Below, in pieces: positions 3,287 to 11,132 of a stretch of DNA of 64,000 bases. The stretch spans positions 935,251-999,250 of the forward strand of contig JAVHLR010000001.1 in NCBI GenBank assembly GCA_031082005.1. The letters run 5' to 3'. Each line of letters starts with the position of its first letter. Within the stretch, counting starts at the first letter, position 1. This stretch comes from Patescibacteria group bacterium. Its GTDB lineage: Bacteria; Patescibacteriota; Patescibacteriia; 2-12-FULL-60-25. Below the pieces are notes generated by a model, which had not been told where the DNA came from, searched no databases, and worked only from the letters and a program-made list of their open reading frames with translations. The translations under genes and the position numbers were made by a program.

Positions 3287-4717
3287 CTACTCTCTTCTTT
3301 CGTCTGTTTCCTTGCTCAAAACCTGAAATGCCGCCAGACATAATCCGATGGGCAGCCACATCTTGCCCGTCCAATAGTCCGTATTGAAAAGCTGATAAAC
3401 GAACGCTCCGCCCGCCGCGGCGATGAAAAGGCTCAAGATCTTTTGGTTACGTACACTCGCGATGGACTTCAGACCTTGTTTGACGAATACAACGAACGCG
3501 ACGAGCAACAGCAACAACGCCGCAAGACCCAAGACGCCGGTTTCCATCATCAGTTTCTGGATGAAGCCGTGTGCATCCAAAGGCGAGCCATATTCGATGG
3601 TGAATAAGGCGGTGGATCCTATGCGTTGGATGAAACTGCCGGCGCCGGCGCCGAAGATGGGGTCGTTCTTGAAATAATCCCAGGCGATCTCGGTCAGCGA
3701 AAGACGCGTCGTGTTGGAGCTCCTTGCGGTATAAGTCGTGGTGTAATACAGCACGCCAAGGGCGAATGGCGCGAGCAGGATAGCCACCATCACGAGTTGC
3801 GAAAAATATTTTTTGGCGCTCTCCCGCCACACCGTCAGACCGAGGAATGTAGCTTGCAGTACGGAAACGATCCAAAAAGTTCGGGTGAACGTCATTATGC
3901 CGATGAGCGTCTGGAATGCACCCAGCCACAACAATATGCGGCGCCATCTTTGGTCCTTGACCAGCATCGAAAGCGCCCACGCGAAAAACGAACCATAGAC
4001 CATTATTTCCGCCAGCTCGTTATGGTTCTCGCCCAAGGCACTCACCCCGAAAATCGGCAAAGGATGCGCGCGACCCAAGAGCATGCTCGGATCAGCCGGA
4101 AAAAAAATCGCGATCAAACCAGTCAGAGCAGCCAGAACGCTGGCCGCCAAGACCACCGACAACGCCCCGATCAGTCTCTTCTTCGATCTTATCAGATTGA
4201 CCGGAAGGGCGATGAAAGCCAGATAGTCGAACAGGACCGGACGCAGACTGAACTGCAGCGTGAATGCCTTATCCGGATAAGCTGAAGAAAAAATCGACAA
4301 GACGTGCGCGAAGAACAGAAAAAAATATTCTTTGATGAGCGGAAGCTTCGGGCGCCAATTCACATCATGTCTGCCGACCCACAAGACGATCAGCCGCATA
4401 GCCCACGCAGCCAAAACCGGAAACATCGCGACCTCGACCAAAAAAACATCCAGATCACCGCCAAATGATCGCTGACCCAAAAGCAAACCGCCCGTCGGGA
4501 CCGAGATCATGATCCCCAAAAAAGGAATCAAGAAGATTGCCGTATAGAATGCGGCATAGATAAATCGGTATGCGAACAGAACCGCGAAAGCCAGAGCCAA
4601 AAGGACGAGAGGAAGATAAGGCGGCCCGATTGCGCTCAAAGTCAAGGCCAGGATTAAAATCAAAAACATGCCCCACGTGAGCGTCGCGTAGTCGCGCTCT
4701 TCGGTGACCTGATGCAT
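3287..4717 (-). CDS. O-antigen ligase/polymerase-like membrane protein
   Basis: A 476-residue polytopic membrane protein with about a dozen hydrophobic segments and a large loop between them. The stretch around GRAHPLPIFGVSALGENHNE and the later FGAGAGSFIQ (the typical G.G.G.F motif of the Wzy_C/O-antigen ligase domain) place it in the O-antigen ligase-like superfamily (WaaL/Wzy-type). Members join or polymerise lipid-linked glycans on the outer face of the membrane. It precedes the fused methyltransferase-glycosyltransferase gene by 77 bases on the same strand, so it probably starts the same surface-polysaccharide operon. CPR bacteria usually lack classical LPS, so the acceptor is more likely another surface polymer; this is inference. 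Start at ATG 4717 gives MHQVTEERD before the first membrane helix. Confidence 0.85.
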   Translation of the reverse strand: MHQVTEERDYATLTWGMFLILILALTLSAIGPPYLPLVLLALAFAVLFAYRFIYAAFYTAIFLIPFLGIMISVPTGGLLLGQRSFGGDLDVFLVEVAMFPVLAAWAMRLIVLWVGRHDVNWRPKLPLIKEYFFLFFAHVLSIFSSAYPDKAFTLQFSLRPVLFDYLAFIALPVNLIRSKKRLIGALSVVLAASVLAALTGLIAIFFPADPSMLLGRAHPLPIFGVSALGENHNELAEIMVYGSFFAWALSMLVKDQRWRRILLWLGAFQTLIGIMTFTRTFWIVSVLQATFLGLTVWRESAKKYFSQLVMVAILLAPFALGVLYYTTTYTARSSNTTRLSLTEIAWDYFKNDPIFGAGAGSFIQRIGSTALFTIEYGSPLDAHGFIQKLMMETGVLGLAALLLLLVAFVVFVKQGLKSIASVRNQKILSLFIAAAGGAFVYQLFNTDYWTGKMWLPIGLCLAAFQVLSKETDERRE

Positions 4718-4950: not shown

Positions 4951-7359
4951 TCAGGGAGCAGGAGCCGCGGGAACCGGGTTGATCACGCCGTTCAGGTAGA
5001 GCGGCCCCAGTCCGTTCGACTGGTATGTGAACGGAACCACGTTGCCGCCGATGGTCACGACCATCGTGCCCACGTCAGCTCCGTTGCCGCCGCAGGGGAT
5101 GTCGGCCGAACGATCGAACGTGTAGCAGTACCCGCCGCCGCTTGCCGCGTATGCGTACATGCCGTCGAACACGAGGTTCGATCCGGTGGGCAAGCTAGCC
5201 GAGCAGCTGTACACACCGGACGCGAACGTCTGGGTGCAGAGCGTAGCCCAGGGATGGATCGGGCCGCTCAACGGCTCACGATACCAGCCCTGAATCACGA
5301 CTGCTCCGGTCGGCAAACGCGCCGGATCCGGGGTCCAGGTGAAGGTCAACACACTCGTGCCGCCACCAGCACCGCCCGTGCCACCCGTGCCTGCAGTGCC
5401 GCCAGTCCCAGCCGTTCCGCCGGTTCCGCCAGCACCGCCCGTGCCACCCGTGCCGGCATCGGTTCCGCCAGCACCACCGGTTCCTGCATCGGATCCACCA
5501 GTTCCGCCCGTGCCGGCATCACCGCACGTTCCGTTGCCGGGGTTGATGTTCGGATCCGTATCGTCGCAGTCGTTCGCTCCGCCGTTCTGGGTCGGGCATG
5601 CCTGCTCGTCGGATACGCCGATCTTGGACCAGCTGTCACGGTCGTCGTCGACGCCGTCGTCCACGAAACCGTCGCAGTCGTCGTCCAGGCCGTTGCACAG
5701 CTCGAGCGCGGACGTGTTGTACGTCGGCGCCGTGAGCGTGTTGCACTGACGCAGTCCCGAAATCTCGTTGCCCTTGTCGCAGCAGTCGCCCTGGGCGGCG
5801 GTCTGTCCGTCGCCGTCGGCGTCATCATCACAGATGTCGCCGAGTCCGTCCTTGTCCATGTCGGACTGGTTCGGATTCGAGTTGACCGGGCAATTGTCCG
5901 TGCCGCTACACTGCGTCGACTGCGTCACTTCGGGGTCGCAGACACCGTCGTTGTCGGCGTCATCGTCACAGGCGTCGCCGTAGGCGTCGCCATCCCCGTT
6001 GGCCTGGTCGGTGTTGGGCACCGTCTTGCAGTTGTCGTTGCCGTCGAGCACGGTGTCGCCGTCGCGATCATCATCACACACGTCGCCAACGCCATCCGCA
6101 TCCTGATCCGCCTGGTCGGCGTTCGCGTGATCAGGGCAGTTGTCGGAGACGTTGGGGACAAGATCGCCGTCGCGGTCATCGTCGCACAGGTTGCCTTCGT
6201 TGTCGGCATCCTGGTCGAGCTGGGAGAAGTTCGGAACAGTGGGGCAGTTGTCCTTGGGGACGCATGCCAGGTCCGTGTACTTCAGCTCGCCGCCGTTGGT
6301 GCAGTCCTCGACTCCGTCGCCGTCGGTGTCGCCTTCACAGGCGTCACCGGTTCCGTCGTGATCGCCGTCGGCCTGATTGACATTGGGGACGACCGGGCAA
6401 TTGTCATTGCCATCGCTGATGCCGTCGCCGTCCCGGTCGCCAGTACACGCGTCGCCGATCTCGTTGTTGTCGGTGTCGAGCTGATCGGGGTTCGGGGTGA
6501 ACTGACAGTTGTCAGAGACGTCGGGGACCAGATCGTTATCGTCGTCGCTGTCACACGCGTTTCCGAGTGGGTCAGCATCCGAGTTGGTCTGCTCGTTGTT
6601 CGCGACGTCCGGACAGTTGTCCGTGCCGCTGCAGGCGATCTTGGGACTGCCGGGATCGCAAATCCCATCGTTGTCGCGATCGAAATCGCAGAGATTGCCG
6701 CGGCCGTCCTGATCGGTGTCGAGCTGGTCGGGGTTGGCGACCGTCGGACAATTGTCTGCATACACGCACTCCGCGTCCGCGTACGTCAGCGTCGAGTCGG
6801 TGCAGTCGAGGACTCCATCGTTGTCGGAGTCGCCGTCGCACTGATCGCCGTCGCCGTCGCCGTCCGAATCGAGCTGGCCAGAGCACGTGCCCTCGACGCA
6901 GCTCCCTCCGGAGTTCAGACAGTCGCCGTCTCCTTCGCAGGAGGGCGGGGCGTTGGGCCGGTATGTGCAGTTGTCCAGGAGCTGCGAGGGTGTGGTTCGC
7001 CCACTCCCTGCGCTTGTGTCGTTGCACGGAAGGACGCCGCCATCGACGCAGTTGGGGACGCTATCCCCGTCGATATCGTCGTCACAGACATCACCCTTGC
7101 TGTCTGCATCGACGTTGTCCTGGTCGTGGTTGGACCGAGTGGGGCAGTTGTCCACGGGGACGCACTGCGGGATGACATTGCCGTTCGAATCCACTGCTGC
7201 AAGCAGCGGATCCGTGCAGTCTTCGACGCCGTCGTTGTCCTGGTCGATGGCCTGCTGGGTCTTGCCGGCCTTGTCGACGGTCGTGTCCGTGGTCGTGCTG
7301 CACGCGCCGAAGGCGATGAGGATGATGCATCCGAGCCCGAGTGTCTTGATATTCGTCAT
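4951..7359 (-). CDS. Thrombospondin type 3 repeat lipoprotein with Cys-containing C-terminal domain
   Basis: About 802 residues from ATG 7359, which follows AGGAGG at 9 bases; an in-frame ATG at 7413 also has a GAGGAG site and would add 18 residues. The N-terminus MTNIKTLGLGCIILIAFGAC is a lipoprotein signal peptide with a lipobox-like FGAC. Most of the rest is some 14 calcium-binding type 3 repeats of the DxDxDGxGDxCD / DNCPxxxNxDQ kind, rich in Asp and Cys. A GTGG-rich linker follows, then a domain of about 130 residues (HPWATLC, YSC, LPTGSNLVF, YCYTFDRSADIPCGGNG) that is also found in the protein at 9341-9835. A rigid, calcium-stabilised surface stalk carrying a terminal domain is the likely role (inference). 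Own promoter and terminator. The GC-rich, repeat-rich style resembles Myxococcota surface proteins and differs from the neighbours. Confidence 0.88.
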   Translation of the reverse strand: MTNIKTLGLGCIILIAFGACSTTTDTTVDKAGKTQQAIDQDNDGVEDCTDPLLAAVDSNGNVIPQCVPVDNCPTRSNHDQDNVDADSKGDVCDDDIDGDSVPNCVDGGVLPCNDTSAGSGRTTPSQLLDNCTYRPNAPPSCEGDGDCLNSGGSCVEGTCSGQLDSDGDGDGDQCDGDSDNDGVLDCTDSTLTYADAECVYADNCPTVANPDQLDTDQDGRGNLCDFDRDNDGICDPGSPKIACSGTDNCPDVANNEQTNSDADPLGNACDSDDDNDLVPDVSDNCQFTPNPDQLDTDNNEIGDACTGDRDGDGISDGNDNCPVVPNVNQADGDHDGTGDACEGDTDGDGVEDCTNGGELKYTDLACVPKDNCPTVPNFSQLDQDADNEGNLCDDDRDGDLVPNVSDNCPDHANADQADQDADGVGDVCDDDRDGDTVLDGNDNCKTVPNTDQANGDGDAYGDACDDDADNDGVCDPEVTQSTQCSGTDNCPVNSNPNQSDMDKDGLGDICDDDADGDGQTAAQGDCCDKGNEISGLRQCNTLTAPTYNTSALELCNGLDDDCDGFVDDGVDDDRDSWSKIGVSDEQACPTQNGGANDCDDTDPNINPGNGTCGDAGTGGTGGSDAGTGGAGGTDAGTGGTGGAGGTGGTAGTGGTAGTGGTGGAGGGTSVLTFTWTPDPARLPTGAVVIQGWYREPLSGPIHPWATLCTQTFASGVYSCSASLPTGSNLVFDGMYAYAASGGGYCYTFDRSADIPCGGNGADVGTMVVTIGGNVVPFTYQSNGLGPLYLNGVINPVPAAPAP

Positions 7360-7513
7360 GGCTACGGCCCTCCTATTGGCCGTGTGCTGAACTGTGCTCT
7401 TCGTGTTGGACATGTCGTATCTCTCCTCTTCCTCTGAACTTGTGAAGAACGACCCCAGCCTAAAAAGCACCGGGGATCCCCCGCCAATATTTGGCGCAAT
7501 TTGGGAATATCGA

Positions 7514-7542
7514 ACCCTAACAAAAATAGTAGAATCTGTCAA
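7514..7542 (-). promoter_or_regulatory. Sigma70-type promoter of the TSP3 lipoprotein gene
   Basis: On the minus strand, TTGACA (7537-7542), a 17-base spacer, then TAGGGT (7514-7519). The roughly 100-base leader that follows contains two short hairpins, cgccaaatattggcg and ggggatcccc. The rest of 7360-7749 holds this leader, a repeat half copy and the next gene's terminator, and no gene. Confidence 0.7.
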
Positions 7543-7597
7543 TAAGACCAGGATAAAACGATTAAAATAAGCAAAAAGCGTTTTAACTGTAAAAAAA

Positions 7598-7634
7598 CTC
7601 CCCTCCTTGGTTAAGGAGGGTAGGGGTGGTGTAG
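7598..7634. repeat. Half copy of the ctcccctcct palindromic repeat
   Basis: The sequence ctcccctccttggttaagg followed by agggtaggggtggtgtag matches one half of the repeat at 40938-41029, with the inner hairpin intact. Confidence 0.65.
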
Positions 7635-7682
7635 CTAAGAAGCCCAAGTCGTGCATCCCGCATAATTTCCGCAATCAGAAAA

Positions 7683-7726
7683 CCGCCAGGATCTCAATCG
7701 CGTGTTTCGCGAGAGCATCCTGGCGG
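7683..7726 (-). terminator. Intrinsic terminator of the 9835-7750 operon
   Basis: A 10-bp stem (ccgccaggat / atcctggcgg) encloses a second small hairpin (tcgcg/cgcga) and is followed on the minus strand by GGTTTTC. It lies 24 bases past the stop at 7750. Confidence 0.75.
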
Positions 7727-7749
7727 CTATTAGGAGGGAGGTGACCAAC

Positions 7750-9306
7750 TTAAAGGTTGGCCACCTTGTCATGGCAGGTATTGCCGGGCTGAAGTTCCAT
7801 GACGAGGTTGTAGAGCGAATTGCTCACCTCGTCGCTGACGGTCACGGCCACCGGCACGTAGGAGGGGCGCTTGCACTCCCCGTTATCGTACCCAACGTCC
7901 CAGGTCGCCCATCCGCTAATGATTCCCATCTTGATGGTGAAGTCGACCGGCGCGACCGCCTCTTCCACCAGCACCTCGTAGAGGCCTGATCCGATAGAAG
8001 ACATGTGGCGTTCGAGGCCGTTGCGATCCCAGTCTTGAAGGATGGGGTCGAGACCGCTGATGGAAGTCAACCGATATCGCACTCGGCGCGGCGCGTTCAT
8101 GCCGTCACAGTCGAAGTCGATGTCATCGTCCGGCGTCTCGACCTGGCCGTGGAACCTACGCGAGTCGTTGTCCGCACAATCATCCGCATCCGGCTCACCG
8201 TCGCCGTCAGCGTCGTTCGCCGTTGGCACAAGGGTGACCGCGTGGAACACGAAGTCACAACTGTCGGGACCGTTGACCACGACCTCTGGCGCCGGAACAG
8301 CGCTACCGTTGTAGGTCGCCCAGATGGCCGCCGTCGGCTCAGCCTTCACGGCGTCGCAGAACTTCTTGGCCCACGGATCCATCCCGCTCTCCGGATCGTA
8401 GTATCCGTTGACCTTCACCGACTTGCCGCTGCCGACGCTGAAGGAGTATGTGGTCCGCGTGACGTTGTTCTCGGTCCACACGGTATTCCAGTCCACCTCA
8501 CCCGGCACGGGATCCAGGCTCTGTGCACGCAGCGTAATGTTGTGCGTCCCAGAAACCGGAACAACAACCGTCACCAGCATCGTGCCAGTACTACCCGCCG
8601 AGCCACCGGAACCGCCCGTACCCGAGCTTCCGCCCGAGCCAGCCGCTCCTCCTGCTCCGCCGGTCCCTGCGCTTCCGCCACTACCGCCGTTGCAGTTGCT
8701 GATGTCTTCGCAGACATCCTCGTACCCGCTTCCGTCGGCCTTGCACGTGGCTTCCCCCATGCAAGTCGTCGTGAGCGCGCACGCTGCCTTGGCGCCAGGC
8801 ACGCAGACCGTCCCGACACTACCGCCCGAGCCAGCCGTTCCGCCAGTTCCCGCTTCTCCTCCGGTACCCGAGCTTCCGCCCGTTCCCGAAGTTCCGCCAG
8901 TCCCTGCGCTGCCAGCTTCGCCAGCCGAGCCAGCCGCGCCACCAGTCCCAGCTTCTCCGCCGCCAGAGCCTCCCGAAGGAGGATTGACTTCGGATCCACC
9001 AGAACCAGCCTGCGAACCGCCCGTACCAGCTTCGCCGGACGAACCACCGGTCGCAGTGCTTCCACTGCTTCCGCCAGTCGCGCTCGAACCGCTGGAGCCG
9101 CCCGTCTGGACGCTGCCGCCCGTGCCTGCTGCTCCGCCGCCACTCCCGCCCGTAGGAGGATTGACTTGGGAACCGCCGGCCGTGCCTGACGCGCCAGCCG
9201 CGTTGCTCTCGTCCATGAGCGAGCCTTCGGAGTTGTCGCCGCAGCCGACGAACGTAGAAAGAGACATCGCAACCATCGCAACCAGAGACACCATCTTGCT
9301 ATTCAT
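7750..9306 (-). CDS. Gly-rich surface lipoprotein with MopE-like Asp-rich segment
   Basis: 518 residues from ATG 9306, chosen because AAGGA lies 7 bases upstream and it gives the lipoprotein signal MNSKMVSLVAMVAMSLSTF ending in VGC. After the Cys comes a very long low-complexity linker of GTGGSSG/GEAGTGG type (about residues 30-170) with a Cys-bearing insert, then a second short Gly-rich linker and a folded C-terminal half. In that half a GYYDPESGMDPWAKKFC segment recalls the HPW...LC motif of the two neighbouring surface proteins, and DADGDGEPDADDCADND with DFDCDGMN resembles the Asp/Cys repeats of MopE-type proteins. It is 34 bases downstream of the small anchored protein, so both are one operon. 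Function unknown; surface adhesion or structure is a guess. Such linkers are typical of Myxococcota lipoproteins. Confidence 0.85.
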   Translation of the reverse strand: MNSKMVSLVAMVAMSLSTFVGCGDNSEGSLMDESNAAGASGTAGGSQVNPPTGGSGGGAAGTGGSVQTGGSSGSSATGGSSGSTATGGSSGEAGTGGSQAGSGGSEVNPPSGGSGGGEAGTGGAAGSAGEAGSAGTGGTSGTGGSSGTGGEAGTGGTAGSGGSVGTVCVPGAKAACALTTTCMGEATCKADGSGYEDVCEDISNCNGGSGGSAGTGGAGGAAGSGGSSGTGGSGGSAGSTGTMLVTVVVPVSGTHNITLRAQSLDPVPGEVDWNTVWTENNVTRTTYSFSVGSGKSVKVNGYYDPESGMDPWAKKFCDAVKAEPTAAIWATYNGSAVPAPEVVVNGPDSCDFVFHAVTLVPTANDADGDGEPDADDCADNDSRRFHGQVETPDDDIDFDCDGMNAPRRVRYRLTSISGLDPILQDWDRNGLERHMSSIGSGLYEVLVEEAVAPVDFTIKMGIISGWATWDVGYDNGECKRPSYVPVAVTVSDEVSNSLYNLVMELQPGNTCHDKVANL

Positions 9307-9340
9307 CGGACAATCCTTCTCCCGTCGATGACGGGTACAA

Positions 9341-9835
9341 TCACGGCATCGTTGTCTTAACGTTGAAGTAGGTCGCCGAACCGCTTGGTCCAGCAATCCC
9401 GTTGGAGACCAGCGTATAGCTAATCGGCTTTGACTCGTGTGTCAGCGTGACCGTGCCGACGTGGGCACTATTGCCCCCGCACGGCTTGTCCAGACTGTAA
9501 TCGAACGTCCAGCACGTCTTGTCCGTCTTGGAGTCGACGTACCGAATTGCGAACACGAGCTCGCTGCCCGATGGAATATCCACCGTACAGGCGTACTCGT
9601 TGCTCGCGCGTCGTTCCATCTCGCACAACGCCTGCCAGGGATGCTGTCTCCCGGCTTCGTTGTACGTTCCTTCGACAGAAACCACACCCTGGGGCACATG
9701 GTCCGGCGGGTAAACCCACCAGATGACCAGTCCCTCTGGATGGTTCGCGCATGCTCGCCACACGATCCCGCCGATGATGATCAGCAGGAACGCCGCGGCG
9801 ATGGCCGCAGCCGCCGCCACAAACGACTTTTTCAC
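9341..9835 (-). CDS. Small membrane-anchored surface protein sharing the HPW-LC/CGGN domain
   Basis: 164 residues from a GTG start at 9835 preceded by AGAAAGG. Residues 5-28 are one hydrophobic anchor (AAAAIAAAFLLIIIGGIVW). The outer part, residues about 37-155, aligns by eye with the last 130 residues of the TSP3 lipoprotein: HPWQALC, YACTVDIPSGSELVF, CWTFDYSLDKPCGGNSA and VGT, then SNG. The shared cysteines and the CGGN(G/S)A motif suggest a disulfide-containing beta domain that I do not recognise. First gene of a two-gene operon with the Gly-rich lipoprotein. A small hairpin (cccgcg/cgcggg, 9850-9867) sits directly before the ribosome binding site. Confidence 0.85.
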   Translation of the reverse strand: MKKSFVAAAAAIAAAFLLIIIGGIVWRACANHPEGLVIWWVYPPDHVPQGVVSVEGTYNEAGRQHPWQALCEMERRASNEYACTVDIPSGSELVFAIRYVDSKTDKTCWTFDYSLDKPCGGNSAHVGTVTLTHESKPISYTLVSNGIAGPSGSATYFNVKTTMP

Positions 9836-9979: not shown

Positions 9980-10008
9980 AAGATATCACAAAATGCCACT
10001 TTTGTCAA
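9980..10008 (-). promoter_or_regulatory. Sigma70-type promoter of the 9835-7750 operon
   Basis: On the minus strand, TTGACA (10003-10008), 17 bases, TATCTT (9980-9985). The AT-rich stretch from 10009 to about 10165 upstream of it holds no gene that I can support. Confidence 0.75.
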
Positions 10009-10268: not shown

Positions 10269-10366
10269 AGGTGACAATGGGGTGCCCGCTTTCTTAACCG
10301 AGGATGTGTTCGAGATAGACTAAAACGAGCCCCGCAGGTAAGAAAGCGGGCACCCCATTGTCACCT
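10269..10366 (+). repeat. Hairpin element copy A (CGAGGA...CCGCAG core)
   Basis: A perfect 28-bp inverted repeat (10269-10296 and 10339-10366) encloses a 42-base core that begins accgaggatgtgttcgag and ends aaacgagccccgcagg. The core is shared almost base for base with the copy at 13172-13213, while the stems differ. The right arm touches the stop codon of the TrmB gene (10365). There is no T-run on either side, so it is not an ordinary intrinsic terminator. Confidence 0.8.
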
Positions 10367-11132
10367 ACCCCATCCTACTTTTATCCACCGGCTTAGCCAC
10401 CTGCCACGCCGCGTTGAACATCGCCCTAAATAAATCCGCCATCTCTTTGTTCTCGACCAAAAAACCCAACGGCTTATTTTTGACTACGTACGCAGCGACC
10501 TTATCATCCACAATATTGATCTCGCCGGTGAAAGGATAAGCGCCATACGGCAGCTGCTTGACTTGCCAATTCGTCAAATCCATCTTCGGTATCGCCATCT
10601 TGGGCTTAAGCGAAAAAATATATCTTCCATGGACCTTGCGCGACATTTTGATGCGTTGATCGGAATTTATGTTCGCCAAGCGCAACGTCCCCTCATCGAT
10701 CGCCGTAAAGCTCAAATACTCACCCTTGGATTGCGCCATGGATTCCCGTAGGGCAATAATCCCCTCTTCCCCCTCAAAAAACCTGACCTGTGGTTTATCA
10801 TCGACCGCGTTGTACAACGCCATGAAATACGGAATCGACTCCTGCAATTTTTGCTTCCTGCTCTCCAACTCATCACGTTCGCGATTCAAGACAGCCGAAA
10901 GCCGCGACGGCGATTCCGCCATAAACAGTGTCTTCTTGTTATCGGTGCTGGACGATGCCAATCCCCGCTTCTTCAACTCGTCCAACGTCAAATATGTCGT
11001 CGAGCGATTCACGCCGGCTTTCTGCGAAATGTCTTGCACGCTCGCCGGCCCGATCTCCAGCATCGCCAGATACACGCACGCCTCCTTGTTGCTCAACCCA
11101 AGTTCCAACAATCTAAGTGTCGCCTCATGCAT
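10365..11132 (-). CDS. TrmB-family HTH transcriptional regulator
   Basis: 255 residues. The first 70 form a winged helix-turn-helix (LLELGLSNKEACVYLAMLEI, then VQDISQKAGVNRSTTYLTLD) typical of the TrmB/sugar-specific regulator family. A short coiled coil follows (LNRERDELESRKQKLQE), then a phospholipase-D-like effector domain of the kind found in this family (VRFFEGEEGIIALRES through GFLVENKEM). Family members sense sugars or metabolites and repress or activate transport and central carbon genes; the ligand here cannot be read. It lies downstream of a GT4 glycosyltransferase's neighbouring region on the same strand with 50 bases between them, so its own regulation is uncertain. Confidence 0.85.
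   Translation of the reverse strand: MHEATLRLLELGLSNKEACVYLAMLEIGPASVQDISQKAGVNRSTTYLTLDELKKRGLASSSTDNKKTLFMAESPSRLSAVLNRERDELESRKQKLQESIPYFMALYNAVDDKPQVRFFEGEEGIIALRESMAQSKGEYLSFTAIDEGTLRLANINSDQRIKMSRKVHGRYIFSLKPKMAIPKMDLTNWQVKQLPYGAYPFTGEINIVDDKVAAYVVKNKPLGFLVENKEMADLFRAMFNAAWQVAKPVDKSRMG

What the first reader, a model, noticed from the sequence alone, without database searches (positions are those of the whole stretch)
4951..9835. Three linked surface proteins, two sharing an undescribed Cys-containing domain
The last 130 residues of the TSP3 lipoprotein and the outer part of the 9341-9835 protein share HPW..LC, a YxC...(L/I)P(T/S)GSxLVF block, C(Y/W)TFDxSxDxPCGGN and VGT at matching spacing. 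The Gly-rich lipoprotein between them has DPWAKKFC, which may be a distant version. Calcium-binding type 3 repeats, Gly linkers and a shared tip domain look like parts of one cell-surface apparatus, perhaps for contact with a host cell.
Basis: partly seen in the sequence, partly recalled or inferred. Interest (0 to 1): 0.62.

Follow-up and report, generated by a model that had tools for sequence, protein, structure and literature searches.

The report
Sugar-binding-like tip domain on Uhrbacteria lipoproteins
Two neighbouring surface proteins of a tiny Uhrbacteria-like bacterium really do share a previously unnamed domain; it looks like a distant cousin of known sugar-binding modules, is also fused to cell-wall-cutting enzymes, and sits in a conserved slot of a surface-sugar gene cluster, which suggests it grips a glycan, though no binding has been tested.

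Summary
The last ~120 residues of the TSP3 lipoprotein (A) and the outer part of the 164-aa protein (C) are one domain (40% identity, BLASTP E 5e-21). B's DPWAKKFC is not shown to be a version of it. No Pfam family covers the domain. The genome is Candidatus Uhrbacteria-like (a genus-mate is named so). A profile finds the domain in 20 of 41 genomes of its family, with no convincing copy elsewhere in the phylum sampled. Architectures: TSP3/MopE stalks, M23-like peptidases (including a third copy in this genome), stand-alone membrane-anchored proteins. AlphaFold gives a confident beta-sandwich (pLDDT 93.5). Structure and profile comparison both point to the CBM48 glycogen-binding fold, with aromatic residues at the two sugar-stacking tryptophan positions in 27 of 28 copies. 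B's C-terminal domain independently matches the same fold. The lipoproteins occupy a conserved slot, GT-trmB-[lipoproteins]-wzy-GT. Best reading: a new CBM48-like glycan-binding tip on surface lipoproteins tied to surface polysaccharide. Ligand, and own-surface versus host-surface role, are unknown; host adhesion is untested. New variant of a known kind.

The parts
9341..9835 (-). Protein C, 164 aa: N-terminal transmembrane anchor (no canonical lipobox) plus the domain (residues 36-164, about 9344-9730)
   Evidence: GTG start with RBS; domain profile E 2.2e-50; model pLDDT 93.5
7750..9306 (-). Protein B, Gly-rich lipoprotein, start ATG 9306; separate family with its own C-terminal two-domain region
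   Evidence: lipobox TFVGC; relatives in about 13 of 41 family genomes
8230..8592 (-). B domain 1 (contains DPWAKKFC): predicted beta-sandwich, closest to FN3-type folds; homology to the A/C domain not shown
8098..8181 (-). MopE-type metal-binding motif between the two B domains
   Evidence: PF11617 below cut-off in this copy; above cut-off in the G001 ortholog
7753..8103 (-). B domain 2: CBM48-like beta-sandwich by predicted structure
   Evidence: The 13 best structural rows are all AMPK/SNF1 glycogen-binding domains, Z 7.7-7.2; model region mostly pLDDT 70-85
4951..7359 (-). Protein A, TSP3 lipoprotein, about 802 aa from ATG 7359 (the listed ORF start at 7674 is upstream)
   Evidence: relaxed lipobox AFGAC, orthologs ISAC and FVAC
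5839..7248 (-). TSP3 calcium-binding repeat stalk of A (approximate limits)
   Evidence: PF02412, 10 stretches, E 6e-48
5533..5730 (-). MopE-type metal-binding motifs of A
   Evidence: PF11617 at 31.5 bits (cut-off 27) and 16.4 bits
5359..5529 (-). Gly/Thr/Ser/Ala-rich linker of A (approximate limits)
   Evidence: Sequence
4987..5349 (-). C-terminal copy of the domain in A
   Evidence: BLASTP E 4.9e-21 to C; profile E 7e-47
10365..11132 (-). TrmB-type regulator, upstream border of the lipoprotein slot
   Evidence: PF01978 E 3.3e-13; synteny
3287..4717 (-). Wzy_C membrane protein (O-antigen ligase/polymerase/O-OTase family), downstream border of the slot
   Evidence: PF04932 41.4 bits, cut-off 31.7; synteny
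9980..10008 (-). Promoter-like site upstream of C (TTGACA-17-TATCTT with extended TG)
   Evidence: Consensus match 10 of 12; not evidence of function
7601..7620 (-). Terminator-like hairpin between B and A, suggesting C-B as one transcript and A as another
   Evidence: Consensus scan; 7 such sites found against 6.3 expected, so weak

Best explanation
The shared element is a family-specific, divergent CBM48/AMPK-glycogen-binding-type beta-sandwich used as the outward end of membrane-anchored surface proteins. Shown: A and C share it; the predicted fold; an invariant Cys pair; near-invariant aromatic residues at two positions; fusion to TSP3 stalks, M23-like peptidases and membrane anchors; placement of the lipoproteins in a conserved trmB-wzy slot. 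Inferred: the two aromatic residues stack against sugar rings as Trp100 and Trp133 do in AMPK, so the domain binds a glycan. The TSP3/MopE segment (calcium-stiffened) and Gly linker hold it away from the membrane. The most likely ligand is cell-envelope glycan: the surface polysaccharide made by the neighbouring glycosyltransferase/Wzy genes, or wall glycan in the peptidase-fused copies. On C and A this would tether or organise the surface glycan; on the peptidase it would target the enzyme. Which glycan, and whether it is the cell's own or a partner cell's, is not decided.
For: Homology and spread. Fold: pLDDT 93.5, pTM 0.87. Structural neighbours: AMPK beta CBM48 4yef Z 7.5, rmsd 2.8, 77 of 79 residues; also CBM56 and GH13 N-terminal modules. 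Profile: A2 against the AMPK CBM sequence from the PDB scores 30.7, P 3.4e-5; 300 shuffles have mean 10.8, sd 2.1, max 19.0; reversed sequence 10.6. The register puts HPW on Trp100 and CWTFDYS on Trp133-THDPS; two disjoint subgroups each support one half of it. In 28 copies the first position is W or Y in 27 and the second W, Y or F in 27; both core Cys and the Asp are in all 28. Trp100/Trp133 are the glucan-stacking residues of CBM48 (PMC9788615, PMC4339375). B's second domain independently matches AMPK CBM48, Z 7.7. Locus conservation. M23-like fusion with HxxxD and HxH motifs.
Against: No Pfam CBM48 or AMPK1_CBM model reaches threshold. Z 7.5 is within the range that common beta-sandwich arrangements reach, and P. 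gingivalis PPAD's Ig-like domain ties with it. Foldseek has nothing below E 0.001. The profile score to AMPK falls to 20.2 with a broader 28-sequence alignment, about the highest shuffle (20.8), and is not significant against a mixed AMPK/GlgB/GlgX profile. The AMPK target was chosen after the structure search. The genomes tested have no CBM48 glycogen enzymes, so glycogen itself is unlikely. No binding data.
Confidence: 0.5

Rival explanations
1. Host-contact adhesin: the lipoproteins form a calcium-stiffened surface apparatus whose tip domain binds glycans or proteins on the partner cell of this episymbiont-like bacterium.
For: Surface lipoproteins, TSP3 stalks, terminal domain, variable content of the slot between genomes, and M23-like fusions that could act on a partner's wall.
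Against: No host is known here and no adhesion data exist; the genes sit in a polysaccharide locus, which suits the cell's own glycan equally well.
Confidence: 0.2
2. The lipoproteins are substrates: the adjacent Wzy_C protein is a protein O-glycosyltransferase that decorates their Gly/Ser/Thr-rich linkers, and the C-terminal domain is only a folded cap or protein-protein module.
For: Wzy_C (PF04932) covers both O-antigen ligases and PglL-type O-OTases, and candidate PglL genes are mostly adjacent to possible target proteins (PMC3643930). The slot is bordered by Wzy_C in nearly all loci where both flanks could be read.
Against: The PglL-specific PglL_A family (PF15864) was not reported for the window's Wzy protein at E 0.1; G018 has trmB next to wzy with no lipoprotein between them, so Wzy does not need this partner. 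Compatible with the best explanation.
Confidence: 0.18
3. A structural Ig-like or FN3-like spacer or protein-protein domain with no sugar binding; the conserved Trp, Cys and Asp serve stability.
For: Middling Z scores, many Ig-like hits, no Pfam match.
Against: Two aromatic positions kept in 27 of 28 copies that share little else, in a register matching sugar-binding residues; terminal rather than internal position.
Confidence: 0.12

Closest known systems
CBM48 / AMPK beta glycogen-binding domain (PF16561, PF02922)
   Same: Beta-sandwich, 77 of 79 residues superposed; aromatic residues at both sugar-stacking positions; motif order preserved
   Different: Sequence below Pfam detection; about 130 rather than 80 residues; extra C-terminal region (VSNG..YFN); disulfide-like Cys; secreted and lipoprotein-borne; no glycogen enzymes of this family in the genomes tested
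MtsC and other TSP3-repeat cohesion proteins of myxobacteria (NF047638)
   Same: TSP3 repeats in a surface protein (197 bits to A)
   Different: Below the family cut-off of 350; the match is over TSP3 repeats; A is a lipoprotein with its own C-terminal domain
Peptidase family M23 (PF01551)
   Same: The peptidase-like domain fused to this domain has HxxxD and HxH motifs
   Different: Below the Pfam cut-off (15.3 and 25.2 against 28.7); the fused tip domain is not described in Pfam
PglL-type O-oligosaccharyltransferase loci
   Same: Wzy_C gene beside Ser/Thr-rich surface proteins
   Different: PglL_A signature not seen; no glycosylation data

Membership tests
CBM48 / AMPK1_CBM | Sequence match above Pfam cut-off (PF02922, PF16561) | tested here: not met
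   No such match for single copies at E up to 10 or for 14 members at E up to 1; genome searches with both models found no domain copy
CBM48 / AMPK1_CBM | E-set/Ig-like beta-sandwich fold of CBM48 type | tested here: inconclusive
   AMPK CBM among the best structural matches but Z 7.5 is under 8 and tied with PPAD; B domain 2 matches more exclusively, Z 7.7
CBM48 / AMPK1_CBM | Two sugar-stacking tryptophans (Trp100, Trp133 in AMPK) | tested here: inconclusive
   Aromatic at both aligned positions in 27 of 28 copies, but W at the second in only 13; the equivalence rests on profile alignment, weaker with the broad alignment, and was not checked on coordinates
CBM48 / AMPK1_CBM | Binds alpha-glucan | not testable with these tools
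   Needs a binding assay
Thrombospondin type 3 repeat proteins (PF02412) | TSP3 repeats above cut-off | tested here: met
   A: 160.7 bits against 25, 10 stretches
Peptidase M23 (PF01551), third domain copy | Match above Pfam cut-off | tested here: not met
   15.3 bits for the window genome's copy and 25.2 for L024, cut-off 28.7
Peptidase M23 (PF01551), third domain copy | Zinc-binding HxxxD and HxH motifs | tested here: met
   HLAHD and HIH in L063:6737-8941; HLGYD and HLH in L024 (sequence)
PglL O-oligosaccharyltransferase (window Wzy protein) | PglL_A signature (PF15864) besides Wzy_C | tested here: not met
   Only Wzy_C reported at E up to 0.1; PilO-type O-OTases also lack it (PMC3643930), so function stays open

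The most novel reading that the evidence does not exclude
A lineage-restricted family of CBM48-like glycan-binding modules, re-used on calcium-stiffened stalks, wall hydrolases and membrane anchors, is the business end of a variable surface-protein cassette built into the polysaccharide locus of an Uhrbacteria family, and decides which glycan (its own capsule or a partner cell's) these cells hold on to.
Probability: 0.25. Interest if true: 0.62.

Novelty: new variant of a known kind. Interest (0 to 1): 0.42.

Why it matters
How Candidate Phyla Radiation bacteria hold on to surfaces and partners is largely open, and few of their surface proteins have an assignable function. This gives a defined, foldable, expressible 130-residue domain with two nameable residues to mutate, a conserved locus to look for in other genomes, and a direct question (which glycan?) that a glycan array could answer. 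If only the cell's own capsule is bound it is still an unnamed domain family absent from Pfam.

Tried and rejected
B's DPWAKKFC as a distant copy of HPW..LC: not above shuffles, 3% profile probability, different place in the fold. A second register of my own (B domain 1 collinear with the whole A/C domain) was not recovered by profile alignment. B domain 2 against the A/C domain by profile: P 0.04, not significant. Viral and plasmid collections: no relatives. Fold search in viral models: nothing below E 0.001. The genome-contig scan with strict patterns gave three loci, all from two close relatives; it is low in sensitivity, so absence outside the phylum is not shown. Hits outside the family are weak: G286 has two stop codons, G442 has E 3e-5 and 6e-4 and was not examined further. 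One AMPK1_CBM hit (L090) lies in unrelated ORFs. PDB sequence search with the profile gave only weak ryanodine receptor matches (best E 0.017). DUF7863 appears at E 0.04-0.18, far below cut-off. Literature searches found no paper naming Uhrbacteria together with thrombospondin repeats or surface proteins.

Full report
WHAT WAS CHECKED. The window is G000:C3:935251-999250 of a 1.31-Mb, 100% complete genome. Relatives that could be named are Candidatus Uhrbacteria (G001) and an unclassified bacterium FK3.bin42 (G003); placing the window genome in Uhrbacteria is therefore an inference from its genus-mate. Three minus-strand genes lie in order C (9341-9835), B (7750-9306) and A (4951-7359). C has a transmembrane anchor; A and B have lipoprotein-type signal peptides, with canonical lipoboxes in orthologs.

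THE SHARED DOMAIN. A's last 120 residues and C's residues 36-164 are homologous: BLASTP E 5e-21, shuffle z about 35, with all motifs in register. No Pfam or NCBIfam model covers the domain. A profile from 14 copies hits 20 of 41 genomes of the GTDB family. In 380 genomes drawn from the phylum and 381 from the class the only hits outside the family are weak: one with stop codons, and two borderline ones in G442 that were not followed up. Iterative search gives 28 aligned copies in the fetched loci. Two Cys and one Asp are invariant in all 28. A second Cys pair is present together in 8 and absent together in 20, as expected of a disulfide.

ARCHITECTURES. (i) TSP3 repeats plus MopE motifs plus Gly linker plus domain: A, G001, G003, G014. 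(ii) M23-like peptidase domain plus the domain, including a third copy in the window's own genome at G000:C3:1174740-1175105 (L063) and many relatives; the HxxxD and HxH motifs are kept, but the Pfam M23 score is below cut-off. (iii) Short anchored proteins: C, and relatives in G003, G001 and G002. (iv) Other Gly-rich or MopE proteins. Re-use on unrelated stalks and an enzyme-like domain is how binding modules behave; this is inference.

PROTEIN B. B is a separate lipoprotein family, matched in 15 of 41 genomes, two of them over the MopE motif only. It ends in two predicted beta-sandwich domains around a MopE motif (mean pLDDT 72). Its similarity to HPW..LC is not significant and fades in B's orthologs. 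Sequence evidence linking it to the A/C domain is lacking (P 0.04).

FOLD AND LIKELY FUNCTION OF THE A/C DOMAIN. The AlphaFold model is confident (pLDDT 93.5). Foldseek gives no significant PDB hit. VIA-align places AMPK beta CBM48 among the best (Z 7.5, 77 of 79 residues), tied with the Ig-like domain of PPAD, then CBM56 and GH13 N-terminal modules. Z under 8 alone could be a common arrangement. As a second line, the domain profile was aligned with the AMPK CBM sequence taken from the PDB: score 30.7, P 3.4e-5, against shuffles of mean 10.8, sd 2.1, max 19.0. The alignment places the HPW tryptophan on AMPK Trp100 and the CW/YW/WW position on Trp133. The two subgroups (TSP3/stand-alone and peptidase-fused) each recover one half of the same register. 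With a broader 28-row alignment the score drops to 20.2, near the top of its shuffles (20.8), though the register stays; a mixed AMPK/GlgB/GlgX profile gives nothing. The target was also chosen after seeing the structural hit. So CBM48 kinship is probable rather than proven. Aromatic residues occupy both positions in 27 of 28 copies. In AMPK these two residues stack on glucose units (PMC9788615), and the equivalent pair is required for starch binding in PTST (PMC4339375). None of 19 relatives tested has a CBM48 match, so the ligand is unlikely to be glycogen made by such enzymes.

THE LOCUS. The gene order GT - trmB - [lipoproteins] - wzy - GT, often with mreB upstream, holds across the family. 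The slot contains C-B-A in G000 and G003; B-A in G001 and G014; a domain-bearing lipoprotein in G004 and, next to wzy at a contig end, in G013. It contains B in G016, G023, G045, G048, G049, G051 and G052, mostly with a second Gly-rich lipoprotein that can lie on the opposite strand; B also lies beside trmB in G047 and G011, where the contig ends before wzy. In G005, G012, G021, G041 and G042 it holds other Gly-rich or MopE-like proteins that were not among the A/C-domain or B hits. In G018 it is empty. Others (G009, G015, G020, G053) could not be judged. This is a conserved slot with variable surface-protein content beside glycosyltransferases and a Wzy_C protein.

RIVALS. Wzy_C proteins include protein O-oligosaccharyltransferases that usually lie beside possible substrates (PMC3643930). 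The Ser/Thr-rich Gly linkers could be such substrates. The PglL_A signature was not seen, but PilO-type enzymes lack it too. Host adhesion remains possible but has no direct support. A pure spacer role fits less well with the two conserved aromatic positions.

VERDICT. The shared domain is real and undescribed in the libraries searched; the B extension is not supported as stated; the domain is most likely a divergent CBM48-like glycan-binding tip. It is a new variant of a known kind, of moderate interest.

Noticed in passing
G000:C3:1168001-1182000 (L063:6737-8941, minus): A third copy of the domain in the same genome, at the end of a 734-aa M23-like peptidase lipoprotein with a MopE-like segment.
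   Followed up: yes
G000:C3:1-9000 (L109:607-1740, plus): Another Gly-rich lipoprotein with a strong MopE motif (47 bits) near the start of the contig, without the A/C domain.
   Followed up: no
L098:5258-5572 and 5954-6268 (G045): Two identical 104-aa ORFs that look like GIY-YIG endonucleases lie inside the lipoprotein slot, suggesting recent duplication or mobility there.
   Followed up: no
L099, L100, L102, L103, L104 (slot between B and wzy): The second lipoprotein lies on the opposite strand; in several it carries repeated small Cys-rich modules (CxPGKQDxCxCGG..G.QxCKADGSGYDPCxC) and a different C-terminal domain.
   Followed up: partly
L018:8423-8902 (G001): The stand-alone domain protein is outside the slot in G001 and sits beside a ychF-like GTPase gene, with a canonical lipobox instead of a transmembrane anchor.
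   Followed up: partly
L106:4425-6173 (G023): A 582-aa Gly-rich lipoprotein in the slot ends in a region (VVWVPPTTYSP...WGTT...GLCGG) that may be a further diverged copy of the domain; not tested.
   Followed up: no
window 7601-7620 and 7564-7593: A terminator-like hairpin followed by a promoter-like site lies between B and A, hinting at separate transcription of A.
   Followed up: partly
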